From the NCBI GenBank assembly GCA_020796225.1, contig CM036758.1:30049647-30113646 (forward strand): DNA of 64,000 nt, in the 5' to 3' direction. Shown here piece after piece: positions 76 to 61,591 of this stretch. A model generated the notes under the pieces. The model was not told the origin of the DNA and made no database searches. It was given only the letters and a program-made list of their open reading frames with translations. Every line of letters begins with the position of its first letter. Position 1 is the stretch's first letter. The position numbers were made by a program, and so were the translations under genes. The stretch comes from Arion vulgaris. Lineage: Eukaryota; Mollusca; Gastropoda; Stylommatophora; Arionidae.

Positions 76-2019
76 ACAGTTCACTTAGTCACTTAGTCAC
101 TTAGTCAGATATCCAACCACAGTTCACTTAGTCAGATATCCAACCACAGTTCACTTAGTCAGATATCCAACCACAGTTCACTTAGTCAGATATCCAACCA
201 CAGTTCACTTAGATATCCAACCACAGTTCACTTAGTCAGATATCCAACCACAGTTCACTTAGTCAGATATCCAACTATAGTTAGCTGAGTCACTCAGTCA
301 GATATCCAACCACAGTTCACTTAGTCAGATATCCAACCACAGTTCACTTAGTCAGATATCCAACTATAGTTAGCTGAGTCACTCAGTCAGATATCCAACC
401 ACAGCTAGCTGAGTCACTCAGTCAGATATCCAACCACAGTTAGCTGAGTCACTCAGTCAGATATCCAACTATAGTTAGCTGAGTCACTCAGTCAGATATC
501 CAACTATAGTTAGCTGAATCACTCAGTCAAACATCCAACTATAGTTAACTGAGTCACTCAGTCAAATATCCAACTATAGTTAGCTGAGTCACTCAGTCAG
601 ATATCCAACCACAGCTAGCTGAGTCACTAAGTCAGATATCCAACCACAGTTAGCTGAGTCACTCAGTCAGATATCCAACTATAGTTAGCTGAGTCACTCA
701 GTCAGATATCCAACTATAGTTAGCTGAGTCACTCAGTCAAATATTCAACTATAGTTAGCTGAATCACTCAGTCAAACATCCAACTATAGTTAACTGAGTC
801 ACTCAGTCAAATATCCAACTATAGTTAGCTGAGTCACTCAGTCAGATATCCAACTATAGTTAGCTGAATCACTCAGTCAGATATCCAACTATAGTTAGCT
901 GAGTCACTCAGTCAAACATCCAACTATAGTTAACTGAGTCACTCAGTCAAATATCCAACTATAGTTAGCTGAGTCACTCAGTCAGATATCCAACTATAGT
1001 TAGCTAAGTCACTCAGTCAGATATCCAACTATAGTTAGCTGAGTCACTCAGTCAAATATCCAACTATAGTTAGCTGAATCATTCAGTCAGATATCCAACT
1101 ATAGTTAGCTGAGTCACTCAGTCAAATATCCAACTATAGTTAGCTGAGTCACTCAGTCAGATATCCAACCACAGCTAGCTGAGTCACTCAGTCAGATATC
1201 CAACCACAGTTAGCTGAGTCACTCAGTCAGATATCCAACTATAGTTAGCTAAGTCACTCAGTCAGATATCCAATTATAGTTAGCTGAGTCATTCAGTCAA
1301 ATATTCAACTATAGTTAGCTGAGTCCCTCAGTCAGATATCCAACTATAGTTAGCTGAGTCACTCAGTCAGATATCCAACTATAGTTAGCTGAGTCACTCA
1401 GTCAAATATCCAACTATAGTTAGCTGAGTCACTCAGTCAGATATCCAACTATAGTTAGCTGAGTCACTCAGTCAGATATCCAACTATAGTTAGCTGAGTC
1501 ACTCAGTCAGATATCCAACTATAGTTAGCTGAGTCACTCAGTCAGATATCCAACTATAGTTAGCTGAGTCACTCAGTCAGATATCCAACTATAGTTAGCT
1601 AAGTCACTCAGTCAGATATCCAACTATAGTTAGCTGAGTCACTCAGTCAAATATCCAACTATAGTTAGCTGAATCATTCAGTCAGATATCCAACTATAGT
1701 TAGCTGAGTCACTCAGTCAAATATCCAACTATAGTTAGCTGAGTCACTCAGTCAGATATCCAACCACAGCTAGCTGAGTCACTCAGTCAGATATCCAACC
1801 ACAGTTAGCTGAGTCACTCAGTCAGATATCCAACTATAGTTAGCTAAGTCACTCAGTCAGATATCCAATTATAGTTAGCTGAGTCATTCAGTCAAATATT
1901 CAACTATAGTTAGCTGAGTCCCTCAGTCAGATATCCAACTATAGTTAGCTGAGTCACTCAGTCAGATATCCAACTATAGTTAGCTGAGTCACTCAGTCAG
2001 ATATCCAACTATAGTTAGC
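76..2019. repeat. 35-bp minisatellite (27-bp variant at left)
   Basis: About 50 copies of a 35-bp unit containing AGTTAGCTGAGTCACTCAGT and CAGATATCCAACTAT. The first 220 bases use a shorter 27-bp form, AGTTCACTTAGTCAGATATC plus CAACCAC, which lacks an 8-bp CACTYAGT duplication. Positions 1001-1420 and 1596-2015 share the same private variants (CAATTATAG, GTCCCTCAG) 595 bp apart, which is 17 units, so there is a higher-order duplication. No coding content. Confidence 0.97.
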
Positions 2020-2593
2020 TAAGCCGATTGTTGCGCACTGAGCACCCTTCGAGATATCTTTGGTGATTGCCAATTTAGCGCCTTAATCACCAGTTTTATT
2101 ATATGTTTTATATGTCAAGCGGAAACATAAGCTGGGAAGGGCGTCATAAGCAAAATGAAAACCACAATTGAAGGTTATTTTAAAGAATAAAACATTTAAG
2201 AGGCGGCATTTCGAAGACTTGCATCATACTGAGAAAATATACCGCACGGCCCTGGAAACACCTATGACAAGACAGTAATACATTTTAAAAAGTAAACGAA
2301 AAAGAGTGTGGGGTGGAAACGTCTCTATTCTCTATTTAAGACAGAATCTGATATTTGAGACGATAGACAGAGAAATTTAATCCTCTTGAATGTTACTTTT
2401 TATTATTTCACAGCAATTGAAGGATGTAATATAAAACTGGTATTGCTGAACAATAGATATTACTACACTGAGAGAGCATGTATATACAAACATATATACT
2501 TCTATATCGTCATTTGTTGACTTAAGCTTGACAACAACTTGTAATAGTAATATTACCAGCATGAGTTCATCAGATTTTCTAAATATTGCAACT
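2020..2593. other. unassigned AT-rich stretch
   Basis: No splice-bounded open frame or recognised repeat. 2030-2095 vaguely resembles the J-type repeat ends seen at 8690 and 62310 (GCACTGAGCACC, GATATC), but too weakly to call. Confidence 0.4.
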
Positions 2594-4858: not shown

Positions 4859-5204
4859 AAAGCCACGTATCCGAGACCCGCTATGACAGACATGTAACAA
4901 CATGAAGATATGAACGGATTACGTACACCTTCAAGACTTAGAGTATCATGTTACAGTATTACGATATTGAATGACAATCATGTCATCAATGCCATCTTAC
5001 ATCCATAATGGAGTATCACCTTTGACTCCTATGATGAACTTCAACCATCAGTATCAATCACAGCCTAACTACCAACATACAATCCCAGTCATTTCATCAC
5101 CCAGTACAGCACTACCTGCTCCTACTATAAGTACTTCTGTATCCAGTCAAATATCATCTAGCCAAAATGGTTACACTCATCATCAACCAGAAACTATTCC
5201 ACAT
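4859..5204 (+). CDS. possible 5' exon with start codon, S/T/P/Q-rich product
   Basis: An acceptor (TATATTTCAG) ends at 4858 and a near-consensus donor CAT|GTGAGT starts at 5205. All three frames carry stops at the 5' side, so coding must start inside, at ATG 4971 (preceded by an in-frame TGA) or ATG 4980. This leaves 78 codons ending in phase 0. The predicted peptide is rich in Ser, Thr, Pro and Gln (MSSMPSYIHNGVSPLTPMM, SSPSTALPAPTISTSVSS), as in activation or linker regions of transcription factors. It lies on the same strand and 15 kb upstream of the p53-like exon at 20475, but the phases do not join directly (phase 0 donor against a phase 2 acceptor). An unseen small exon, the weaker acceptor at 20448, or a 5'UTR/uORF role would be needed. 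It could also belong to another gene. Confidence 0.42.
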
Positions 5205-7164: not shown

Positions 7165-7690
7165 ATCGATGTTACATTTGCATTGACTAACACTGCGATT
7201 GACTAACTATCGCATTGACAACTACGCGTATTGACTAACTACTGCGCATTGACAACTCGCGATTGACAACTACGCGTATTGACAACTACGCGCATACAAC
7301 TACGCGATTGACACTATCGCGCATTGACAACTACTGCGCATCCATTGCAACATGCGCTTGACTGACACTGATGCGTATTGACTAACTACTGCGTATTGAC
7401 TAACACTGCGCATTGACTTGATACACTGCGCATTGACTAACTACTGCGCATTGACTAACTACTGCGCATTGACTAACTACTGCGCATTGACTAACTACTG
7501 CGATTGACTAACTACTGCGCATTGACTAACTACTGCGCATTGACTAACTACTGCGATTGACTAACTACTGCGCATTGACTAACTACTGCGCATTGACTAA
7601 CTACTGCGTATTTACTAACTACTCGATTGACTAACTACTGCGTCATTGACAACTACTGCATTGACTAACTACTGCGCATTGACTAACTAC
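7165..7690. repeat. 18-bp tandem array (TTGACTAACTACTGCGCA)
   Basis: About 28 copies. The right part is regular. The left part (7165-7400) is riddled with single-base losses, for example GACAACTACGCG, suggesting poor consensus quality as well as decay. Confidence 0.93.
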
Positions 7691-8385
7691 TCATATCATT
7701 ACATTCAGACCGTGACAGTCCTCTCTCATCAAATGTTTGCATTGACTAACTACTGCATATCTATCACATTCAGACCGTGACAGTCCTCTCTCATCAAATG
7801 TTTGCATTGACTAACTACTGCATATCTATCACATTCAGACCGTGACAGTCCTCTCTCATCAAATGTTTGCATTGACTAACTACTGCGTATCTATCACATT
7901 CAGACCGTGACAGTCCTCTCTCATCAAATGTTTGCATTGACTAACTACTGCGTATCTATCACATTCAGACTGTGACAGTCCTCTCTCATCAAATGTTTGC
8001 ATTGACTAACTACTGCATATCTATCACATTCAGACTGTGACAGTCCTCTCTCATCAAATGTTTGCATTGACTAACTACTGCATATCTATCACATTCAGAC
8101 CGTGACAATCCTCTCTCATCAAATGTTTGCATTGACTAACTACTGCGTATCTATCACATTCAGACTGTGACAGTCCTCTCTCATCACATGTTTGCATTGA
8201 CTAACTACTGCATATCTATCACATTCAGACTGTGACAGTCCTCTCTCATCAAATGTTTGCATTGACTAACTACTGCATATCTATCACATTCAGACCGTGA
8301 CAGTCCTCTCTCATCAAATGTTTGCATTGACTAACTACTGCATATCTATCACATTCAGACCGTGACAGTCCTCTCTCATCAAATG
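7687..8385. repeat. 65-bp tandem array, about 10-11 copies
   Basis: Unit: ATCTATCACATTCAGACCGT, GACAGTCCTCTCTCATCAAA, TGTTTGCATTGACTAACTAC, TGCAT. Its last part contains the 18-bp motif of the adjacent array, so the 65-mer grew from an 18-mer joined to unique sequence. Confidence 0.96.
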
Positions 8386-8990
8386 ACCAACATGATAAAG
8401 CCTCATCTAAAGCTGACTTGTCCTCAATCTGTGATGGCAATCCCAAGCAATCGTCCAAACAATCTGTCAAGCAGTATACCAGAGTCTTGCAACACTCGAA
8501 TGACAACAATCAACTTGAACCCAAACTGTCGGTGAGTAAATTGTCAATACAGAGAATATGAATAAGTGTGTCAGATATCAACATTAATCTCGTGATATAA
8601 ATGCGATGTACGACAATCTATAAATCTGAGGTGGTCAGATCGAATCTGATCGTTATTGGTTATTGGTTACTAAACTGACGTCATTGCACTCCGGGCAAAC
8701 CCATAGGTGCTCAGTCTCCCCAACAGATATCGAAGAGTTTGCATACTGATGGTTCCTGTGGCTCGTTGATTAAACACACCTCTCACTCTGCCTCTCAGGC
8801 ATCCAGTTCGACTTGAACAACGGGTCGATATAGAATCTGATCAGATCTATGGAGGAAATCGTTTGGGTGGATGCGGTAATACTGAGTAAATATGCGATTG
8901 AACAAAGACAGGTATATACAGTATTATATAAGTAGTGAAAAATGAATGATTAAATATTAAAATAAACAGCACTCGACATATATCTTGTGA
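8386..8990. other. mostly unassigned; J-type repeat at about 8650-8790 (-)
   Basis: 8650-8790 resembles, in reverse orientation, 62265-62350: AACGAGCCACAGGAACCATC, then GGGGAGACTGAGCACC and GTGCAATGACGTCAGT. This may be another tRNA-headed SINE. The rest shows no gene. Confidence 0.5.
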
Positions 8991-9974: not shown

Positions 9975-10620
9975 CAGCGATCTCTGGTCATGCGCTTAAT
10001 TTACTGTGGACCACAAACTGGGAAGTCAGCTTCAGGTCTGTCAGGTTTCCCAAAGCTTAGTTTTCAGGTCGACTGGGTGTGGCCACATGTTGATTCTCAG
10101 CTCACCCAGGAGAGGACAATCTTGCAGGATATGCTCTGGTGTCTGTTCCGCCTGCTGACACTGGCAGAGAGCGGTTTGACTTATTCCTAGTCTATATAAG
10201 TGTTTGTTGAGTCTGCAGTGTCCGGTGCGTAGTCGAAATATAAAATGACCTGGTTTGTTCTGCGTAGGTCTTTGAGAGAGTCTTTTCCATAATCATATCC
10301 AGTGTTTGTCTTCCAGTCTACTGCAAACTTTCTCTGTGTGAGGGGATTGACCTCTTGAAAAGACAGTGGTTGGTAAATTTGCTCTTTGGCACTGCCTCCT
10401 TAGCTAAGACATCGGCACTCTCATTGCCTGCAATGCCACAGTGAGATGGAATCCACTGCAAGTGAATTTCTGCCTTTTCTGAAAGCTGAGCAAGTTCTCT
10501 TTTAGGTTTTGTACTGTGCTGTCAGCGGATTTAGCCTCCAGGGCTTAGATATGTACGAGAATTGTGTATTTTCTCTCTTCCTTCGATATAGTCTGCCTTA
10601 TGGGCAATACTCGCAATCTT
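9975..10620 (-). mobile_element. LINE RNase H and zinc-knuckle end, degenerate
   Basis: The - strand contains LQWIPSHCGIAGNESADVLA, the C-terminal RNase HI signature (W-x-PSH-x-G-x-x-GNExAD) of jockey/I-type LINEs. It continues through broken frames with CQQ/C-rich and H-x-x-C remnants to about 9975. The related + copy at 30846-31640 has WIPSHCKIKSNEDADRLAK. Several stops make it inactive. Confidence 0.83.
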
Positions 10621-13394: not shown

Positions 13395-14885
13395 CGTTCA
13401 ACAACTAAAAGCGATGTAGAATAGTTAGAAGAACCAGTAAATACCACCGGAGCAAAAATGGCAGCAGGGATAGATGGTATAACAACACAAATGTTACTTG
13501 CATGTAAAACAACAGCAATAACCTGGCTGACCAGAATTTTAAACATAGTTTGGGAGGCACAAGAAGCTCCAGACGACTGGCAGAGCGCAGTTAGTCACAA
13601 TATGGAAGAATAAGGAAGACAAAAGAGAATGTGAAACATACAGGGTATCTCTCTTTTGAGCCATAAAGGAAAAATGTTTGCAAAAATATTGGAGCGAAGA
13701 GCAAGACATATATTAGAGCCCCAGTTAAGCAATAGCCAGTTTGGGTTTAGGAGGGGTAAGAGCTGCACAGATGCAATATTTACATTAAAACAGATATGCG
13801 AACAAACAATTGAATACAATCAAAGTAAACAGCTTATATTTATAGACCAAGAAAAGGCATTTGATAGAGTAAACAGATGCAAATTATGGAAGATCCTTGA
13901 AGAAGTTGTCCAGGGACAACTATTAGGCAATATCATGGCCTTATATCAAGATAGCCAGAGTACAGTAAGAACAACAGAGGGATGACCAACTGGTTCTCCA
14001 TTACATCAGGTGTCAGACAAAGCTGTGCCCTTTCACCCCTGCTCTTTATTGCATATATGGATAAAATAACTCAAAAGTTATATATTCAGGTAATGATGAA
14101 ATAAATGAACTGCTTTTCTCAGATGATCAGTGCTCGATACATCAAAATGAACAAGATCTACAACATCATATTGACACCCTGAATCAAAATTGTTTAAATC
14201 ATGACATGAAAATCAACAACACTAAAACAGAAATAATGAATATGGGAAGAAAACATAATAAACTAGATATCCATGTCAATGGCACTACAATCAACCAAGT
14301 GAAAGAATTCAAATACTTAGGAAGCATATTCACAGAAGACTAGATAGAGGCTAGAGTGCAAAAAAGCAAATGCTGTAACCTACCAACTAACCCCATTGCT
14401 AAGGCACCCAAACATTTCACTGACAGCTAAGAAACAGATGATCAACAGCATTGTCCTACCTACTTTGTGTTACCAGATCCAAACATGAACAATGAGCAAA
14501 GCGCAGTCACACACAAAAATAACTACCTGTGTAATGCGCTGCCTGGGAAAAGTTACCAACAACACCAGAAAAGACCAGAATCACCAGCGTCAGCTTAAGA
14601 AGGAAGTTGACACAGAACCTTGAGAATTACATTGAGAAACAAAGAATGAAGTGTTTTGGCCACTTAATAAGAATGCATCCAAACTCCACAGTATACAATC
14701 TTCTACAACAGAACATCAGAGAAGAAGGCGAGAGGAAGAACACGAACAAGATGGTTAGATGGTATAGTAGAATTCTGTCAAAGGGCAAAAATAACAATCA
14801 CCCAAGCCACCAGAACAGCGCAAGACAAAAACAGAAAACCACGACACTGGACAACAACCCGGTAGCAGTGTGATGACAAAAGAAG
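13395..14885 (+). pseudogene. LINE reverse transcriptase, frame-broken
   Basis: Domain order on +: fingers KMAAGIDGITTQMLL (about 13456), FAKILERRARHILEPQLSN and SQFGFRRGKSCTDAIFTLKQ, and motif A LIFIDQEKAFDRVNRCKLW near 13839. Motif C appears as LLFSDDQC (about 14110-14130), in place of the usual YADD. Next come MKINNTKTEIMNMGRK, VKEFKYLGSIFTED and a stop, and a C-terminal part MKCFGHLIRMHPNSTVY up to an AAAAGAAGAAGAAG tail. At least three frameshifts or stops separate the blocks. The N-terminal endonuclease is absent, as expected for a 5'-truncated insertion. RT catalysis would be lost. Confidence 0.92.
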
Positions 14886-17410: not shown

Positions 17411-17532
17411 AGAAAGCATCAAGCTTAAAGCAGCTAAAAACTGCAATTAAACGAATTCTTCTATAACTATTATATCAATATCCATTTATCACTTCGCAAT
17501 GCTACTGTCCTATCAAAAATAACAGCCCTCAC

Positions 17533-17818
17533 CCAGTTGATCAAAGCTGGAGAACATGAGCATGGGAAATGAAGCTCTGTTATATACATCTTCAAGGTCT
17601 GTCGCAGCTGCTCTCATTTTCATCCCTGACTGGAAGTCCTCATAGGTATTATGCAAAAACAGCAGCACCGGATCAGGTATCCTTACCAGGACATTACTCT
17701 TTAAGATTTGGAGTACTTTTTCCATATCCAAGATAGTTTTATCTTCACTATTGTTTGAAGTGGCCATTGAAAATGTTGCAGGGGCCAAACTGACATCAAT
17801 TAGATGGAAAGAAGACAT
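17533..17818 (-). CDS. unidentified splice-bounded exon, minus strand
   Basis: On the - strand an acceptor TCTTCCAG ends at 17819 and the exon opens with ATG at 17818. It is open for 95 codons plus one base to a strong donor CTGG|GTGAGG at 17532. The product begins MSSFHLIDVSLAP and includes EDKTILDMEKVLQILK, VLVRIPDPVLLFLHNTYEDF, MKMRAAATDLEDVYNRASFP and MLMFSSFDQL. Composition is like a soluble helical protein. I do not recognise the family. No partner exons are identified on the - strand, where the next hundreds of bases on both sides hold LINE pieces. A gene nested on the opposite strand of the p53-like intron, or a fragment captured by a transposon, are both possible. Reading through the donor gives a stop after five residues. 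Confidence 0.42.
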
Positions 17819-17880
17819 CTGGAAGACTTGGATTTTGAAGATGATATTGCAATAATTGAGTAAATACAACCAAGATATAC

Positions 17881-18320
17881 AACGAAAAACATAACTTATT
17901 CATATCGTTAAAATTTAGACTGCAGATAAGCTACGAAGTTGTCACAGTAAACACTTGCCAATTGACCGTCTGTAAAGACGAAAAAGGCCATATATGACAA
18001 GTAATGCAGATATCACGCTAGAATCCAAAATAATAAAAATAAGAGCCGTTCACCTATTTGGGTAGAAGTTATGACTGCACAGGAAGACACCAAAAATTGA
18101 ATTATTCTAATATTTGTCAAAGCAGCATAGCTTTTAAAAGTCTAAATGAAATATGGAACTCACAAGTTATAGTTTTAAAACAAAATTTGAAAATAAATGT
18201 CTGCAAAAAATAATGATAATGAACATAAAATGTAACAAATTCAGAAGGGATGAAATCAAGAGAAATGTCTGGTCATTAGTAACATTTTTTATAAAAGAAG
18301 ATGGAGATATGTTTGGCAAA
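17881..18320 (+). mobile_element. LINE 3' tail and degenerate LINE fragment
   Basis: 17937-17996 matches the LINE 3' tail at 16090 in inverse orientation (GTTGTCACAGTAAACACTTG, AAAAAGGCCATATAT). 18000-18310 has weak resemblance to LINE C-terminal coding (CNKFRRDEIKRNVWSLV). Low identity. Confidence 0.5.
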
Positions 18321-20474: not shown

Positions 20475-20603
20475 CTATGGAAGAGTGAGTGTGCCAGTTG
20501 GAATGTCCCAGCTTTCTGCCACAAGCTCTGCAAGTCAATTAAGTGCTCCAATGTCTCAGGACACATTTGTCCATCTCTGGCAACTACTACAGAAAGAGAA
20601 TAC
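20475..20603 (+). CDS. p53/p63/p73-family transactivation-domain exon
   Basis: Acceptor with a long pyrimidine tract (CTCTCTTATTCCTTACAG, ending 20474) and donor AATAC|GTAAGT at 20604. In the frame entering with one base, the exon gives YGRVSVPVGMSQLSATSS, ASQLSAPMSQDTFVHLWQLL, QKEN. The core SQDTFVHLWQLL has the p53-family TAD signature SQ[ED]TFxxLWxLL, with F (20566-20568), W (20578-20580) and L (20587-20589) spaced exactly as the three MDM2/coactivator-contacting residues of p53 TAD1. An in-exon ATG at 20503 could initiate translation. If upstream coding exists it must arrive in phase 2. The role would be a stress-responsive transcription factor N-terminus. The DNA-binding, tetramerisation and SAM regions are not seen in this window. 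A second open frame on the same strand (LWKSECASW...) is cysteine-rich and not protein-like. Intron sizes on both sides are unusual only because of transposon load. Confidence 0.82.
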
Positions 20604-22292: not shown

Positions 22293-22396
22293 AGACTATA
22301 CCCAGATTGGTGCTAGAAATGATTCAGTTATGGGAGGAGGAAGAAAAACTAACCTTTCAGGTGGATAGATTTCAGATCAGGCATGAGTTGGACTTG
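22293..22396 (+). CDS. candidate exon after the p53-like exon, frame ambiguous
   Basis: Acceptor CTCATTTCAG ends at 22292. Joined to the two leftover bases of the 20475 exon, the reading is T-DYTQIGARNDSVMGGGRKT until TAG at 22366. DYTQI recalls the residues that follow the TAD in squid-type p53, as I remember them. To avoid the stop, that frame needs the weak donor CAG|GTGGAT at 22361. The stronger donor, TTG|GTGAGT at 22397, suits a different frame that starts at the second AG (22294) and reads TIPRLVLEMIQLWEEEEKLT, FQVDRFQIRHELDL. That is acidic and helix-like, and phase 0 at both ends. Only one can be right unless a base error lies in the GGGAGGAGGAAGAAAAAC run. A piggyBac copy begins 19 bp downstream. 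Confidence 0.48.
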
Positions 22397-28626: not shown

Positions 28627-30600
28627 CCATGAGTGATAGTAAATATCGTGCATATGTTGTGCCATTGAGCGATCTTAAATGTCGTTCATATGTTTTGTTA
28701 TTGAACGATAGTAAATGCCATTCATATGTTGTGTCATTGAGCGATAGTAAATATCGTGCATATGTTGTACCATTGAGTGATAGTAAATTATTCATATGTT
28801 GTGCCATTGAGTGATAGTAAATGTCATGCATATGTTGTGCCATTGAGTGATAGTAAATATCGTGCATATGTTGTGCCATTGAGCGATGGTAAATGTCATG
28901 CATATGTTGTGTTATTGAACAATAGTAAATGTCATGCATATGTTGTGCCATTGAGCAATAGTAAATGTCATGCATATGTTGTGCCATTGAGCAATAGTAA
29001 ATGTCATGCATATGTTGTGCCATTGAGCGATAGTAAATGTCATGCATATGTTGTGCCATTGAGCGATAGTAAATGTCGTTCATATGTTTTGTCATTGAGC
29101 GATAGTAAATGTCATGCATATGTTGTGTCATTGAGCGATAGTAAATTTGCATATGTTGTGTCATTGAGCAATAGTAAATGTCATGCATATGTTGTGTCAT
29201 TGAGCGATAGTAAATGTTGTGTCATTGAGCAATAGTAAATGTCATGCATATGTTGTGTCATTGAGCAATAGTAAATGTCATGCATATGTTGTATCATTGA
29301 GCAATAGTAAATGTCATGCATATGTTGTGTCATTGATCAATGGTAAATGTCATGCATATGTTGTGCCATTGGCATAGTAAATGTCGTTCATATGTTTTGT
29401 CATTGGCGATAGTAAATGTCATGCATATGTTGTGTCATTGACAATAGTAAATTTGCATATATTGTGTCATTGAGCAATAGTAAATGTCATGCATATGTTG
29501 TGTCATTGAGCGATAGTAAATGTCATGCATATGTTGTGTCATTGAGCGATAGTAAATGTCATGCATATGTTGTGTCATTGAGCGATAGTAAATTTGCATA
29601 TGTTGTGTCATTGACGGTAGTAAATGTCATGCATATTTGTGTCATTGAGCAATGGTAAATACCATGCATATGTTGGTCATTGAGCAATGTAATGTCATGC
29701 ATATGTTGTGTCATTGAGCAATAGTAAATGTCATGCATATGTTGTGTCATTGAGCAATAGTAAATTTGCATATGTTGTGTCATTGAGCAATAGTAAATGT
29801 CATGCATATGTTGTGTCATTGAGCAATGGTAAATGTCATGCATATGTTGTGTCATTGAGCAATGATAAATATCGTTCATATGTTGTGTCATTGAGCGATA
29901 GTAAATGTTGTGCATATGTTGTGTCATTGAGCGGTAGTAAATGTCATGCATATGTTGTGTCATTGAGCGATAGTAAATGTCATGCATATGTTGTGTCATT
30001 GAGCAATAGTAAATGTCATGCATATGTTGTGTCATAGGGTAGTAAATGCATGCATATTTGTGTCATTGAGCAATAGTAAATGTCATGCATATGTTGTGTC
30101 ATTGAGCAATAGTAAATGTCATGCATATGTTGTGTCATTGAGCAATAGTAAATGTCATGCATATGTTGTGTCATTGAGCAATAGTAAATGTCATGCATAT
30201 GTTGTGTCATTGAGCAATGGTAAATGCCATGCATATGTTGTGTCATTGAGCAATGGTAAATGTCATGCATATGTTGTGTCATTGAGCGATGATAAATATT
30301 GTTCATATGTTGTGTCATTGAGCGGTAGTAAATGTCATGCATATGTTGTGTCATTGAGCAATAGTAAATGTCATGCATATGTTGTGTCATTGAGCAATGG
30401 TAAATGCCATGCATATGTTGTGTCATTGAGCAATGGTAAATGTCATGCATATGTTGTGTCATTGAGCAATGATAAATATCGTTCATATGTTGTGTCATTG
30501 AGCGATAGTAAATGTTGTGCATATGTTGTGTCATTGAGCGATAGTAAATGTTGTGCATATGTTGTGTCATTGAGCGATAGTAAATGTTGTGCATATGTTT
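28627..30600. repeat. 36-bp satellite, about 54 copies
   Basis: Unit AGTAAATGTCATGCATATGT, TGTGTCATTGAGCRAT. Each unit holds CATATG and ATGCATAT. Since 36 is 12 codons, long open frames appear on both strands (up to 251 codons). They follow the repeat exactly and break where single bases drop out (29370-29440, 29600-29700, 30030-30060). Not a gene. Confidence 0.97.
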
Positions 30601-30845: not shown

Positions 30846-31640
30846 CAACATAGAAACATTTATGAAGTCTGAGAGAACCAGAATTATTGGAGTTCCTTTG
30901 GTTGAATCGTCCACAGTAGAACTAACCTTAGCTCTGGTCACTGGCAAGTTCTCAACCAATTTCAGGGCTGAGGTAGAGGCCCTCAGTGCAGATGCAAAAA
31001 TGGCACTACAAAATATGAACCAAATACATGGAAAAATAGTGCTCTTGACTGACGCATTGTCTGCTATCTCAGCACTGAAATCTGAAAGGAACACAGAACT
31101 AAGTGATCTCAGGTCAACGTAGCCCAGTTATCCCATGAATCTGAGAGGGTAGTAATCCAGTGGATACCCTCACACTGCAAGATCAAGAGTAATGAAGATG
31201 CTGACAGACTGGCTAAGAGGAGCAGAATGCCCCAAGATGACAACCTGGTTAGCTATGAAGAAGCAAAAACCATCGCCAAAGGGCACTACAAAGCAAAATG
31301 GGATAAAGAACACCAAAACACAAGAATGATGGATATTACCAACTGTCCAGAAGGGACCAGACAGCTATACTTCACCTTCGGACGGGTCACAACAGAATGA
31401 GACACCACCTGTACACCAAATTCAAGATAGGCACCAACGACCTGTGCCCCTGTGGCTTAGCAACTATGACAACAGAACATATCCTACAGAACTGCCCCCA
31501 GTATGCAAACCTGAGAAGAAAGAGGTGGCCCACTTACACCAGCGTCAAGACAAACTGTATGGCGTGGCTGATAATCTGAGGCAGACGGCTGCCTTTATTA
31601 GAGAATCCAAAATCCCAATCTAGTGAGAGCAAAGAAGAAG
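30846..31640 (+). mobile_element. LINE RNase H and zinc-knuckle 3' end
   Basis: Order on +: LALVTGKFSTNFRAEVEALS (catalytic E), KIVLLTDALSAISAL (catalytic D), VVIQWIPSHCKIKSNEDADR (catalytic-region histidine and aspartate), LYTKFKIGTNDLCPCGLATM and TEHILQNCPQY (C-x-C..H....C knuckle). One stop near 31120 and one shift near 31390 break it. Ends with an AAGAAGAAGAAGAAAAAAT tail, a proper LINE 3' end. Confidence 0.9.
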
Positions 31641-35699: not shown

Positions 35700-36790
35700 T
35701 ATTGCTCTGTTATTGTCGGTAGAAATGGGACATGAAGGTTTAACTTCATTGTCGGTAGAAATGGGACATGAAGGTTTAACTTCATTGTCGGTAGAAATGG
35801 GACATGAAGGTTTAACTTCATTGTCGGTAGAAATGGGACATGAAGGTTTAACTTCATTGTCGGTAGAAATGGGACATGAAGGTCCAACTTCATTGTCGGT
35901 AGAAATGGGACATGAAGGTTTAACTTCATTGTCGGTAGAAATGGGACATGAAGGTCTAACTTCATTGTCGGTAGAAATGGGACATGAAGGTTTAACTTCA
36001 TTGTTGGTAGAAATGGACATGAAGGTTTAACTTCATTGTCTAGAAATGGGACATGAAGGTTTAACTTCATTGTCGTAGAAATGGGACATGAAGGTTTAAC
36101 TTCATTGTCGGTAGAAATGGGACATGAAGGTTTAACTTCATTGTCGGTAGAAATGGGACATGAAGGTTTAACTTCATTGTCGGTAGAAATGGGACATGAA
36201 GGTTTAACTTCATTGTCGGTAGAAATGGGACATGAAGGTTTAACTTCATTGTCGGTAGAAATGGGACATGAAGGTTTAACTTCATTGTCGGTAGAAATGG
36301 GACATGAAGGTTTAACTTCATTGTCGGTAGAAATGGGACATGAAGGTCTAACTTCATTGTCGGTAGAAATGGGACATGAAGGTTTAACTTCATTGTCGGT
36401 AGAAATGGGACATGAAGGTTTAACTTCATTGTCGGTAGAAATGGGACATGAAGGTTTAACTTCATTGTCGGTAGAAATGGGACATGAAGGTCTAACTTCA
36501 TTGTCGGTAGAAATGGGACATGAAGGTCTAACTTCATTGTCGGTAGAAATGGGACAGGAAGGTTTAACTTCATTGTCGGTAGAAATGAGACATGAAGGTC
36601 TAACTTCATTGTCGGTAGAAATGAGACATGAAGGTTTAACTTCATTGTCGGTAGAAATGGGACATGAAGGTTTAACTTCATTGTCGGTAGAAATGAGACA
36701 TGAAGGTCTAACTTCATTGTCGGTAGAAATGGGACATGAAGGATTTACGCTATTGTACCGGGTGTCCCATATATTGCTCCACCATTGTCG
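35700..36790. repeat. second 36-bp satellite, about 29 copies
   Basis: Unit GGTAGAAATGGGACATGAAG, GTTTAACTTCATTGTC. Unrelated in sequence to the 28.6-kb satellite despite the same length. Open frames (to 414 codons on the - strand, DNEVKPSCPIST repeats) are products of the 12-codon unit. The first and last units share the unusual flank TACCGGGT..CCCATAT. Confidence 0.97.
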
Positions 36791-38744: not shown

Positions 38745-39475
38745 TGGGGTCTCTAGCGTAGAGGTTAGGTGTTCGTCTTTCGTTCCAAAGGTACCAGTTC
38801 GCTTCCTCGTAGAGCCATCTGGATATTTTTCTAGTGATCCATGATCTTAGTGTAAGTGAGATCGAGTTCCTAATCCTATCGGAGACGGATGATAAAACGT
38901 AAGTCCCGTGTTCAATTTGAGCACGTAAAAATATAATGGCAGGTCAAAATTGAGAAGAGCCTGACAGGAAATCTGCGGCCTCCACTCCACTAGCACAATT
39001 CATTAGAAAATATTTTTTTTTTAAATTTCTGCAACATATATTCAACATTACTTTGCAACATATATTCAACATTACTTTGCAACATATATTCAACATTACT
39101 TTGCAACATATATTCAACATTACTTTGCAACATATATTCAACATTACTTTGCAACATATATTCAACATTACTTTGCAACATATATTCAACATTACTTTGC
39201 AACATATATTCAACATTACTTCGCAACATATATTCAACATTACTTCGCAACATATATTCAACATTACTTCGCAACATATATTCAACATTACTTCGCAACA
39301 TATATTCAACATTATTTCGCAACATATATTCAACATTACTTCGCAACATATATTCAACATTACTTCGCAACATATTCAATTACTTGCACAATATTCAACA
39401 TTCGCAACATATATTCAACATTACTTCGCAACATATATTCAACATTACTTCGGTGACCCTCCAGGTGTCCCTTTT
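38745..39475 (+). repeat. SINE family D expanded internally by a 24-bp array
   Basis: Head GGGGTCTCTAGCGTAGAGGT to TTGAGCACGTAAAAATATAA and AGAAGAGCCTGACAGGAAAT, then the 24-bp array, then GGTGACCCTCCAGG, where other copies have GGGGACCCTCGCTGG. The remaining 3' half is lost or diverged. Confidence 0.85.
39028..39453. repeat. 24-bp tandem array, about 17 copies
   Basis: Unit CAACATATATTCAACATTAC TTYG. The left half uses TTTG and the right half uses TTCG. It matches the corresponding single region of another family D copy (53130-53165: CAAATATATACCAACATTCC). Long frames across it on both strands are spurious (24 is 8 codons). Confidence 0.95.
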
Positions 39476-46654: not shown

Positions 46655-46905
46655 ATGTAGAAAATGAAAATCGTGGCATATCCAAAGGACGTAGCCATCA
46701 ACCACAGTAAATGAGTCGTTGATTTTCTAGGCACCACTTATACGTTCAGTAGTTTGCAATTCTTTCTGAACAGTGAGTCTATTTTTACCTTTTGTAAAAA
46801 TCCCACGGAAACAAATTTGCTTCCAAACGTGCCTTCGTGGGGTTTGAACAGGTACGCTGGGGTTCATGATCAAGCTCACTACCGCTTGAGCTACAGAGGC
46901 TCACC
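46655..46905 (-). repeat. SINE family C, full length
   Basis: On the - strand: GCCTCTGTAGCTCAAGCGGT, ACCTGTTCAAACCCCACGAA and AGTTTACAT..ACTGAACGTA to AAATCGTGGCATATCC read on +. It starts 15 bp after the + copy's end, making an inverted SINE pair. Confidence 0.93.
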
Positions 46906-47605
46906 CATGTAGATATAATTAATTGCAATATATAAACTAGAGAGAGAGAGAGAGCAATCTGGACACAATGCTTGTCCATGTAGATATAATTAATTGTAAT
47001 ATATAAACTAGAGAGAGAGAGAAGCAATCTGGACATACAATGCTTGTCCATGTAGATATAATTAATTGTAATATATAAACTAGAGAGAGAGAGAGAGCAA
47101 TCTGGACACAATGCTTGTCCATGTAGATATAATTAATTGTAATATATAAACTAGAGAGAGAGAGAAGCAATCTGGACATACAATGCTTGTCCATGTAGAT
47201 ATAATTAATTGTAATATATAAACTAGAGAGAGAGAGAGAGCAATCTGGACACAATGCTTGTCCATGTAGATATAATTAATTGTAATATATAAACTAGAGA
47301 GAGAGAGAGAGAGCAATCTGGACACAATGCTTGTCCATGTAGATATAATTAATTGTAATATATAAACTAGAGAGAGAGAGAGAGCAATCTGGACACAATG
47401 CTTGTCCATGTAGATATAATTAATTGTAATATATAAACTAGAGAGAGAGAGAAGCAATCTGGACATACAATGCTTGTCCATGTAGATATAATTAATTGTA
47501 ATATATAAACTAGAGAGAGAGAGCAATCTGGACATACAATGCTTGTCCATGTGGATATAATTAATTGCAATATATAAACTAGAGAGAGAGAGCAATTTGG
47601 ACATA
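46905..47605. repeat. 70-bp tandem array with variable GA tract, about 10 copies
   Basis: Unit TGCTTGTCCATGTAGATATA, ATTAATTGTAATATATAAAC, TAGAGAGAGAGAGAGCAATC, TGGACACAA. Length varies through (GA)5-8 and ACA/ATACA. - strand frames (LSLSSLYITINYIYMDKHC) are artefacts. Confidence 0.96.
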
Positions 47606-51809: not shown

Positions 51810-52835
51810 TCAGAAAGAAAGAACGGGGATCGCGAGAGAGAGAGAGAGACAGAAAGAACGGGGATCGCGAGAGAGAGAGAGAGAGAGAGAAGAAAGAACG
51901 GGATCGCAGAGAGAGAGAGAGAAGACGAGAGAGAAAGAAAGAGGGATCGGAGAGAGACAGAGACAGAAAGAACGGGGATCGCGAGAGAGACAGAAAGAAC
52001 GGGGATCGCGAGAGAGAGAGAGACAGAAAGAACGGGGATCGCGAGAGAGACAGAAAGAACGGGGATCGAGAGAGAGACAGAGAACAGGGATAAGAGAGAG
52101 CAGAAGAACGGGGATCGAGAGAGGAGACAGAAAGAACGGGATCGAGGAGAGAGACAGAAAGAACGGGATCGAGAGAGAGAGAGAAAGAACGGGATCGCGA
52201 GAGAGAAGAGAGAGAGAGAAAGAACGGGATCGCGAGAGAGAGAGAGAGAGAGAGAAAGAACGGGGATCGAGAGAGAGAGAAAGAACGGGGATCGCGAGAG
52301 AGACAGAAAGAACGGGGATCGCGAGAGAGAGAGACAGAAAGAACGGGATCGCGAGAGAACGAAAGAACGGGGATCGAGAGAGACAGAAAGAAGGGGATCG
52401 AGAGAGAGAGAGAGACAGAAAACGGGATCGGAGAGAGAGAGACAGAAAGAACGGGATCGAGAGAGAGAGACAGAAGAACGGGGATCGAGAGAGACAGAAG
52501 AACGGGATCGCGAGAGAGAGAGAGCAGAAGAACGGGATCGCGAGAGAGAAGAGAAGAAAGAACGGGGATCGCGAGAGAGAGAACAAAGAACGGGATCGCG
52601 AGAGAGAAGAACGGGGATCGCGAGAGAGAGAGACAGAAAGAACGGGGATCGCGAGAGAGAGAGACAGAAAGAACGGGGATCGCGAGAGAGAGAGAGACAG
52701 AAAGAACGGGGATCGCGAGAGAGAAAGAGAAAAAGAACGGGGATCCGGAGAGACAGAAACAGAAAGAACGGGGATCGAGAGAGACAGAAAGAACGGGGAT
52801 CGAGAGAGAGAGACAGAAAGAACGAATGCCGAGTA
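51810..52835. repeat. GA-rich satellite, about 35 units of 25-40 bp
   Basis: Unit CAGAAAGAACGGGGATCGCG with (AG)4-9. Length variation and one-base gaps in AACGGGG and GATCGCG are frequent, mainly 52080-52600. - strand frames of up to 413 codons (LSLSRSPFF repeats) are artefacts. Confidence 0.96.
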
Positions 52836-58989: not shown

Positions 58990-60840
58990 CATGAAGTGTG
59001 TGTGTCCATCACGGCACCTTATGTACAAATATCGTACGTGTGTGTGCGCGCATCACGGCACCTTGTGTACAAATATCGTGTGTGTGTCCATCACGGCACC
59101 TTATGTACACATATCGTACAGTGTGTAATGCTGTGTCCATCACGGCACCTTGTGTACAAATATCGTACGTGTGTGTCGCATGCACTGTGTACAAATAGCG
59201 TGGCCATCACGGCACTTGTACAAATATCGTACGTGTGTGTCCACGGCACTGTACAATATCGTCGTGTGTGTCCATCACAGCCTTGTGTACAAATATCGCT
59301 TTGTGTGTCCATCACACCTTGTGTACAAATATCGTCGTGTGTGTCCATCACACCTTGTGTACAAATATCGTACGTGTGTGTCCATCAACCGTGTGCAAAT
59401 ATGCGTGTGTGTCATCACGACACCTTGTGTACAAATATCGCGTGTGTGTGTCCATCACACCTTGTGTACAAATATCGTGTGTGTGCGCATCACGGCACCT
59501 TGTGTACAAATATCGCGTGTGCCATCACCGTGTACAAATACGTGTGTGCATACGACACCTTGTGTACAAATATCGTGTGTGTGTGCATCACGACACCTTG
59601 TGTACAAATATCGCGCGTGTGTGTGTGCGCATCACGACACCTTGACAATATCGCGCGTGTGTGTCGCATCACGACCCTTGTGTACAAATATCGCGCGTCG
59701 TGTGTGTGTGCCATCACGACCCTTGTGTACAAATATCGCGCGTGTGTGTGTGCGCGCATCACGCACCTTGTGTACAAATATCGCGCGTGTGTGTGTGGCA
59801 TCACGGCACCTTGTGTACAAATATCGCGTGTGTGTGTCCATCACGGCACCTTGTGTACAAATATCGCGCGTGTGTGTGTGTGCGCATCACGACACCTTGT
59901 GTACAAATATCGCGCGTGTGTGTGTGTGTGCGCATCACGACACCTTGTGTACAAATATCGCTGTGTGTGTGACATCACGCACCTTGTGTACAAATATCGC
60001 GCGTGTGTGTGTGCGCATCACGGCACCTTGTGTACAAATATCGCGCGTGTGTGTGTGTGCGCATCACGACACCTTGTGTACAAATATCGTGCGTGTGTGT
60101 GTGTGCGCATCACGGCACCTTGTGTACAAATATCGTGTGTGTGTCCATCACGCACCTTGTGTACAAATATCGTGGTGTGTGTGTGTGTGCGCATCACGAC
60201 CCTTGTGTACAAATATCGCGCGTGTGTGTGTGCGAATCACGACACCTTGTGTACAAATATCGCGTGTGTGTGTGTGTGCGCATCACGACACCTTGTGTAC
60301 AAATATCGCGCGCGTGTGTGTGTGTGCGCATCACGACACCTTGTGTACAAATATCGTGCGTGTGTGTGTGTGCGCATCACGGCACCTTGTGTACAAATAT
60401 CGCGCGTGTGTGTGTGTGCGCATCACGACACCTTGTGTACAAATATCGCGTGTGTGTGTGTGCGCATCACGCACCTTGTGTACAAATATCGTTGTGTGTG
60501 TGTGTTCGCATCACGACACCTTGTGTACAAATCATCGCGCGCTGTGTGTGCGCATCACGACACCTTGTGTACAAATATCGTGTGTGTGTGTGTGTGCGCG
60601 CATCACGACACCTTGTGTACAAATATCGTGCGTGTGTGTGTGTGCGCATCACGACACCTTGTGTACAAATATTGCGCGTGTGTGTGTGTGCGCATCACGA
60701 CACCTTGTGTACAAATATCGCGCGTGTGTGTGTGCGCATCACGACACCTTGTGTACAAATATCGTGTGTGTGTGTCCATCACACCTTGTGTACAAATATC
60801 GTGTGTGTGCGCATCACGGCACCTTGTGTACAAATATCGC
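58990..60840. repeat. GT-rich satellite, about 45 units of 36-46 bp
   Basis: Unit CATCACGACACCTTGTGTAC, AAATATCGCG with (TG)4-10. GGCACC is typical of the left and GACACC of the right. 59150-59720 has many one-base losses. The 667-codon + frame (VYKYRACVC repeats) is an artefact of a stop-free unit. Confidence 0.97.
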
Positions 60841-61591
60841 AACGTATTCCCCTTCGTTTTGTTGTTGTTCGGCAATACCTGTATCTTATCGTGCTACTCA
60901 TTAAATCAATCGATCGGTTACTTCACCTGGTCCATTTACGTTTGCAATCCGTTGGTCTTACCTGTGCTGCCAGAAAGGCTGTATACCCGCTGTGGCTAGC
61001 TGATTTCATTCCCCCTACCGCTCTCTCTCTCTCTCAATAGCCGGCTCGCCTCGATACGTACTCTTATTGTCTCCGACTTGGTTGGTTGGTGATTGGCTGT
61101 TCGTGTCGATGTATGTACAATCGTTCGCTCGTTCGTCTGTGCATATAGTGCGTGCGTATAGTAAGCGTCGCCATGTTGTAACTTGTTTGAACCACCCCTC
61201 AACAAGATCGAACCTGCATCGCGTTCGATCTCTGACCCAACCGATCGTATTCCCCTTCCATTATATTACCTGTCGCTCGGTCCAAGAACCGTTATAGGTC
61301 GAAATGTCCATATCACCTTCTCACTTGTACATTTTAACTTAATGTGATAGGGGGCGATCACTGATTATGTGTTTGTGTATATCTGTTGAATGGTTGTTAC
61401 TCATTCGTTAAGGATCATATTTGTCATACATTCATCAAGTCCACAATGATTAAAATGGAAAGGTTAGGATTCACAACTTATAGGGTGAGTGGACGATAGC
61501 TGTTGAACGTCAAATGTTAATCTAACAATCAGCACACACTCATTAATGTTCTATATCCACATTGTAGATGTTGAATCTAGGATTGTTGCCG
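60841..61591. other. unassigned
   Basis: Contains (CT)n at 61021-61036. GC is higher than in the surroundings at 61050-61300, but no gene is seen. Confidence 0.4.

What the first reader, a model, noticed from the sequence alone, without database searches (positions are those of the whole stretch)
20475..20603. p53/p63/p73-family transactivation exon hidden in repeat-rich DNA
The exon frame contains SQDTFVHLWQLL with F, L, W, L and L at p53 TAD1 spacing, between a strong acceptor and the donor AC|GTAAGT. The chance of SQ[DE]TFxxLWxLL arising at random in an exon-like frame is negligible. It implies this window is the 5' part of a p53-family locus with very large introns.
Basis: partly seen in the sequence, partly recalled or inferred. 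Interest (0 to 1): 0.85.

Follow-up and report, generated by a model that had tools for sequence, protein, structure and literature searches.

The report
Land snail p63-type gene, 5' half
The stretch is a real exon of a mollusc (probably land snail or slug) relative of the p53/p63/p73 genes; the window holds the front half of that gene, with start exons for both a long and a short protein form, and the DNA-binding part lies about 18,000 bases further on.

Summary
Confirmed and extended. Exon 20475-20603 (frame from 20476) carries the p53-family transactivation motif SQDTFVHLWQLL and matches gastropod p53/p63 proteins at scores that 0 of 100 shuffled windows reach. The window also holds, in order on the + strand, two upstream coding exons (4971-5204; about 8359-8531, weaker), the next TA exon (22293-22396) and a deltaN start exon (61446-61484, MIKMERLGFTTYR). 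In the window's own assembly the DNA-binding domain follows on the same contig and strand, 17.8 kb past the window, then tetramerisation and SAM exons. So this is the TA plus deltaN half of a four-domain mollusc p63-type gene with very large introns. A second, old copy lies on contig C26, which fits the known land-snail genome duplication. Single-base frame slips occur in exon D and the DNA-binding exon, and also in the C26 copy; assembly error seems likeliest, recent decay is not excluded. No transcript data. A new member of a known kind; mollusc TA and deltaN forms are already in databases.

The parts
4971..5204 (+). Exon A: coding, N-terminal extension of the TA form (MTIMSSMPSYIHNGVSPLTP...), ends in phase 0; 5' end and start Met (4971 or 4980) not settled
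   Evidence: Matches Lymnaea P0034 1-77: E 6.3e-8 against 120 proteins, E 1.8e-6 on the window without composition correction but E 0.005 with it; 41.2 bits against at most 25.8 in 100 shuffles; donor 15th of 4260
8359..8531 (+). Exon B: coding, ...RMTTINLNPNC plus two bases of a split Arg codon; the 5' end is a candidate only (8413 also leaves the frame open)
   Evidence: Matches Physella P0033 and Lymnaea P0034 just before exon C; weak: 21.9 bits, reached by 1 of 100 shuffles, and with Haliotis as query by 12 of 100; donor 14th of 4260, acceptor 8359 322nd of 4024; A+B+C open frame
20475..20603 (+).
22293..22396 (+). Exon D: second TA exon (DYTQIGARNDS... / EEEEKLTFQVDRFQIRHELDL), ends in phase 0; the frame changes by one between about 22327 and 22334
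   Evidence: Matches Bradybaena P0047 47-70, E 0.002; 31.2 bits against at most 23.1 in 100 shuffles; acceptor weak, 976th of 4024; donor GTGAGT seen in the sequence, not ranked
61446..61484 (+). Exon E: deltaN start exon, MIKMERLGFTTYR, ends in phase 0 before GTGAGT
   Evidence: Matches N-termini of Pomacea P0049, Elysia P0035, Gigantopelta P0022, Mytilus P0024, Lottia DeltaNp63alpha P0026; 27.7 bits against at most 18.9 in 100 shuffles; donor 4th of 4260; identical peptide in the C26 copy

Best explanation
The exon is the transactivation-domain exon of a p53/p63/p73-family gene of a gastropod, probably a stylommatophoran land snail or slug. The window holds the 5' half of the gene: TA exons A to D and, 39 kb further, the first exon of the deltaN form. 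The shared exons (LNPIL..., DNA-binding, tetramerisation, SAM) follow beyond 64000. Mechanism, inferred from the family: an upstream promoter makes TA proteins whose F-x-x-LW-x-x-L helix recruits coactivators and MDM2-type regulators; a second promoter near 61.4 kb makes a deltaN protein that lacks the helix, binds the same DNA and can compete with TA forms. Exons D and E both end in phase 0 and the shared exon F starts with a whole codon, so either can splice to it. Shown: exon order, homology, phases, domains. Inferred: promoters, splicing, protein activity.
For: Five collinear exons on the + strand match gastropod p53-family proteins, four of them above 100 of 100 shuffles. The P53 domain lies on the same contig and strand 17.8 kb past the window, E 2.9e-44. 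Exons F to O follow in order in the 70 kb read beyond the window. Pfam: P53 185.1 bits, P53_tetramer 38.0, SAM_2 24.5. Phases agree across B|C (split Arg codon) and at D and E.
Against: Frame slips: one in exon D, two in the DNA-binding exon near RIC/CPGR/DRKADEK. The TAD hit is just under Pfam's cut-off. Exon B is weak and its start unsettled. D's acceptor is weak. Two database searches with the exon or the joined N-terminus found no protein at E<=10. No RNA evidence.
Confidence: 0.93

Rival explanations
1. The locus is a dying duplicate: after the land-snail genome duplication the C6 copy lost function recently, and the frame slips are real.
For: Three slips in the C6 gene. Of 6 near-complete intronless HSP70 matches on C5, C8, C17 and C20, 4 are unbroken, so the C6 gene looks worse than that yardstick.
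Against: The C26 copy has slips too, in its TAD exon, exon D and DNA-binding exon (my reading of the sequences); 2 of the same 6 HSP70 matches are split between frames; residues on both sides of each C6 slip are conserved; dN 0.07 with saturated dS over 258 codons. In another land-snail assembly, frameshifts in Hox genes proved to be errors by PCR (PMC12328838).
Confidence: 0.2
2. Division of labour: the C26 copy has lost its TA form and makes deltaN only, while C6 keeps both.
For: In C26, exons A and B were not found in the 36.6 kb read upstream of its TAD exon, the MSQ start reads ISK, and from that place on the TAD exon is 15 of 33 identical to C6, while the deltaN peptide is identical.
Against: C26 keeps exon D, which only TA forms use, about as well as C6: in its second half each is 12 of 21 identical to Bradybaena. 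Its TAD keeps F, L and W.
Confidence: 0.2
3. The TAD-like motif is a chance match in intron or intergenic DNA.
For: P53_TAD scores just under its cut-off; the motif is short.
Against: 0 of 100 shuffles reach its score; collinear exons and a p53 DNA-binding domain on the same strand.
Confidence: 0.02

Closest known systems
Gastropod p53/p63-like proteins: Bradybaena similaris P0047, Lymnaea stagnalis P0034, Haliotis P0019, Lottia TAp63gamma P0042 and DeltaNp63alpha P0026
   Same: TAD, DNA-binding domain, tetramerisation motif, and in the alpha-type forms SAM; TA and deltaN N-termini; in the Lymnaea protein an N-terminal extension like exons A and B
   Different: Frame slips in this assembly; TAD followed by QLLQKEN instead of the more usual -TLGEVTENG; exon maps of the relatives were not available to compare
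Vertebrate TP63 (TA*, TA and deltaN forms)
   Same: A coding exon ahead of the one that carries the TAp63 start; an internal deltaN exon (3') that replaces a whole number of residues, 69 by 14 (PMC9091270, passages seen)
   Different: Exon B and the start of C show no significant similarity to the vertebrate TA* extension: 20 of 100 column shuffles score as high. TP63 intron phases are recalled or follow from those passages; no call gave its exon map
C26 copy in the same assembly
   Same: Same exon order from the TAD exon to the C-terminus, identical deltaN peptide, 87% identical over 258 codons of exons E, F, H, I and K
   Different: Diverged TAD exon (...MAENTFNKLWQLIRKES) without the MSQ start; exons A and B not found

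Membership tests
p53/p63/p73 family | N-terminal transactivation motif F-x-x-LW-x-x-L | tested here: met
   Exon C; (Pfam 19.8 bits against a cut-off of 20)
p53/p63/p73 family | P53 DNA-binding domain in the same gene | tested here: met
   Same contig and strand, 17.8 kb past the window
p53/p63/p73 family | Tetramerisation motif | tested here: met
   Exon K, 38.0 bits
p53/p63/p73 family (p63/p73 type) | SAM domain | tested here: met
   Exons M and N joined, SAM_2 24.5 bits against a cut-off of 20.5
p63/p73 type two-start layout | Internal deltaN first exon between the TA exons and the shared exons | tested here: met
   Exon E, by homology and splice phase only
p53/p63/p73 family | Unbroken reading frame | tested here: inconclusive
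   Slips in exons D and I of the assembly
p53/p63/p73 family | Transcript joining the TAD exon to the DNA-binding exons | not testable with these tools
   No RNA data
p53-MDM2 pathway | MDM2 with a SWIB domain in the same genome | not tested
   Searches with PF02201 were unanswered
TP63 TA* extension | Sequence similarity of the extension | tested here: not met
   hhalign score 7.9, reached by 20 of 100 column shuffles

The most novel reading that the evidence does not exclude
The whole 5' scheme (a coding exon ahead of the TA start whose last, split codon is Arg; a TAD exon of phase 2 to 2; a second TA exon; an internal deltaN exon; the last two both ending in phase 0) was inherited from the common ancestor of molluscs and vertebrates, so that a TA*-like long form and the TA/deltaN switch are older than vertebrate p63; the land-snail genome duplication then gave two such loci whose TADs have drifted apart.
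Probability: 0.35. Interest if true: 0.5.

Novelty: new member of a known kind. Interest (0 to 1): 0.33.

Why it matters
It gives an exon map of a gastropod TA/deltaN locus and of an old duplicate of it. With that one can ask which parts of the p63 two-start layout are ancestral, and how two copies share the work after an invertebrate genome duplication. For the scan it shows that one short motif in repeat-rich DNA led to a real gene.

Tried and rejected
Recalled human p53 and p63 DNA-binding regions against the window gave only noise, because that exon lies outside it. The exon alone in the protein database: 4 candidates, none at E<=10. The joined N-terminus: 425 candidates, none at E<=10. 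Shared ancestry of exon B with the vertebrate TA* extension was tested and not supported by sequence. Rfam: 0 matches in the window at gathering scores. The tree of 22 DNA-binding domains did not resolve the two copies and Bradybaena. In one search I ranked the donor of exon D at a wrong position (22400 instead of 22396); that number is not used.

Species: the assembly (1,519,966,189 bases, 3227 contigs) is unnamed. Arion vulgaris (Nanopore, 1.54 Gb, 26 chromosome scaffolds; PMC9392753, passages and one section seen) is a guess from size only. A paper search for a stylommatophoran assembly of '1.52 Gb' gave 0 papers.

Full report
What was checked. The p53-like frame begins at 20476, and the exon enters and leaves in phase 2. 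Pfam's P53_TAD model matches it at E 5.3e-4, 19.8 bits, just under its cut-off of 20. The nearest PDB sequences are human p53 peptides, best E 0.063. By a simple weight matrix its acceptor is the 6th best of 4024 AG sites and its donor the 86th of 4260 GT sites in the window.

Relatives. A search with a recalled squid p53 found 1152 proteins at E<=1e-5 among 5044 candidates; the best 120 were listed, and 69 of these 120 have a TAD-like pattern in their first 260 residues. By BLASTP against the 120 the exon peptide matches Lymnaea P0034 (E 7.8e-9), Bradybaena P0047 (3.7e-8) and Haliotis P0019 (7.0e-8) best. In Lymnaea and Haliotis the similarity starts at the exon's first full codon: YGRVSVP and YGKIVVP ahead of MSQ.

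More exons in the window. Tblastn of 14 listed mollusc proteins shows five collinear pieces on the + strand: A 4971-5204, B ending at 8531, C 20475-20603, D 22293-22396, E 61446-61484. Real bits and the best of 100 dinucleotide shuffles: A 41.2 and 25.8, C 40.0 and 23.5, D 31.2 and 23.1, E 27.7 and 18.9. B is weak: 21.9 bits, reached by 1 of 100; with Haliotis as query 12 of 100 reach it. With BLAST's composition correction the match of A falls to E 0.005. The donors of A, B and E rank 15, 14 and 4 of 4260; the acceptor of D is weak, 976th of 4024, and the candidate acceptor of B at 8359 is 322nd. B ends in CG and C starts with C, which gives one Arg codon across the intron; the aligned molluscs have Arg at this place, or Met in Lymnaea and Physella, while Solemya P0009 differs. 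With an acceptor at 8359 or at 8413, A, B, C and the first part of D form one open frame; with 8294 they do not.

The deltaN exon. MIKMERLGFTTYR at 61446-61484, followed by GTGAGT, matches the N-termini of Pomacea P0049, Gigantopelta P0022, Mytilus P0024, Elysia P0035 and Lottia P0026, which its source names DeltaNp63alpha. D and E both end in phase 0 and the shared exon F starts with a whole codon, so both can feed it. In human TP63 the deltaN promoter likewise lies upstream of an internal exon 3' whose 14 residues replace the first 69 of TAp63alpha, and TA*p63 starts in exon 1, ahead of the TAp63 start in exon 2 (PMC9091270, passages; PMC6746776, passages).

The rest of the gene. The window is bases 30049647-30113646 of contig C6 of a 1.52 Gb assembly; the P53 DNA-binding domain lies at 30131449-30131904 on the same strand, E 2.9e-44, 17.8 kb past the window. 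In the 70 kb read beyond the window, exons F to O follow in order: LNPIL..., start and body of the DNA-binding domain, tetramerisation motif, SAM, C-terminus. No exon was found in the 20 kb read upstream of the window. Pfam confirms P53 (185.1 bits), P53_tetramer (38.0) and SAM_2 (24.5) on typed exon pieces. In Mollusca all four family domains are conserved (PMC5543598, abstract, part 1 of 3 of its Results and passages seen). The largest gap between neighbouring exons is 39,049 bases, from D to E; for TA transcripts it lies inside an intron of about 50 kb.

A second copy. Contig C26 holds another such gene with introns: the same deltaN peptide, a diverged TAD exon, exon D and the later exons. 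Over 258 comparable codons of exons E, F, H, I and K (the other exons were not compared) the copies share 87% of residues, with dN 0.07 and saturated dS: an old duplication with both copies long under constraint. Land snails and slugs have an ancestral genome duplication (PMC9392753, passages and one section; PMC12328838, abstract and Results). That the two copies stem from it is an inference. In a tree of 22 DNA-binding domains both fall with Bradybaena, Elysia, Plakobranchus, Lymnaea, Physella, Biomphalaria and one unnamed protein (support 94/93, under the tool's starred level), unresolved within.

Against the simple picture. Exon D is 104 nt and its two conserved halves lie in different frames. 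The DNA-binding exon of C6 changes frame twice near RIC, CPGR and DRKADEK. By my reading the C26 copy has single-base slips in its TAD exon, exon D and the start of its DNA-binding exon. As a yardstick, of the 6 near-complete intronless HSP70 matches on C5, C8, C17 and C20, 4 are unbroken and 2 are split between frames (I left out two long matches on C27, which may be bacterial, and the many partial rows). Slips in both p53 copies and in other conserved genes, conserved residues on both sides, and PCR-proven errors of this kind in the Lissachatina fulica assembly (PMC12328838) make assembly error the likeliest cause. A recent loss is not excluded: three slips in about 2 kb of the C6 gene are more than the HSP70 yardstick would lead one to expect.

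How it would work. By established knowledge of the family the TAD helix binds coactivators and, where both partners are kept, MDM2; for the bay mussel pair the measured Kd is 15 uM (PMC10303687, abstract and part 1 of 2 of section 5). DeltaN forms lack the helix and can compete for DNA. None of this was tested for this animal, and the search for its MDM2 did not complete.

Novelty. Mollusc p63-type proteins of TA and deltaN kind are in the databases (Lottia entries). None of the listings of my paper searches showed a title on the 5' exon layout of mollusc p53-family genes or on duplicated p53-family genes in land snails; these listings are capped and the library holds open papers only, so this is not proof of absence. 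Verdict: a new member of a known kind.

Noticed in passing
G000 C26 about 11184600-11277100 (loci L016 to L025): A second full-length p53-family gene with introns, with an identical deltaN start peptide and a diverged transactivation exon.
   Followed up: partly
window 255-2020, 7180-8385, 28636-30599, 35712-36747, 39030-39450, 46905-47592, 51917-52824, 59542-60840: Long tandem arrays with units of about 18 to 71 bases fill much of the introns. The array of 65-base units at 7676-8385 runs into the presumed start of exon B, and its units carry the same candidate acceptor.
   Followed up: partly
window 13635-14340 (+), 31107-31397 (+), 10044-10292 (-): Remnants of retrotransposons: reverse transcriptase (RVT_1, E 2e-12 and 2e-8), RNase H (below cut-off) and zf-RVT (below cut-off).
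   Followed up: partly
window 17513-17899 (- strand): An open frame of 128 aa with a weak, sub-threshold match to the M1 peptidase N-terminal domain (E 0.017); perhaps an exon of another gene.
   Followed up: no
G000 C27:512421-1422884: Three uninterrupted HSP70-type matches, among them the best of the whole assembly; C27 might be a bacterial contig.
   Followed up: no
P0032 (Biomphalaria glabrata): This protein starts MSQLSSIESTLSDPMSQETFSHLWTVLE, a TAD, while a 2017 paper reported that the Biomphalaria p53/p63/p73 lacks it and blamed poor coverage (PMC5543598, passage).
   Followed up: no
P0002 and P0003 (cephalopods): Two different N-termini (...TVNPNCRFGTIVIPPDCKM and MDPYTSRLSVRYLTAEPNPFGTVVIPPDCKM) lead into the same TAD part, which looks like alternative first exons ahead of the TAD exon.
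   Followed up: no
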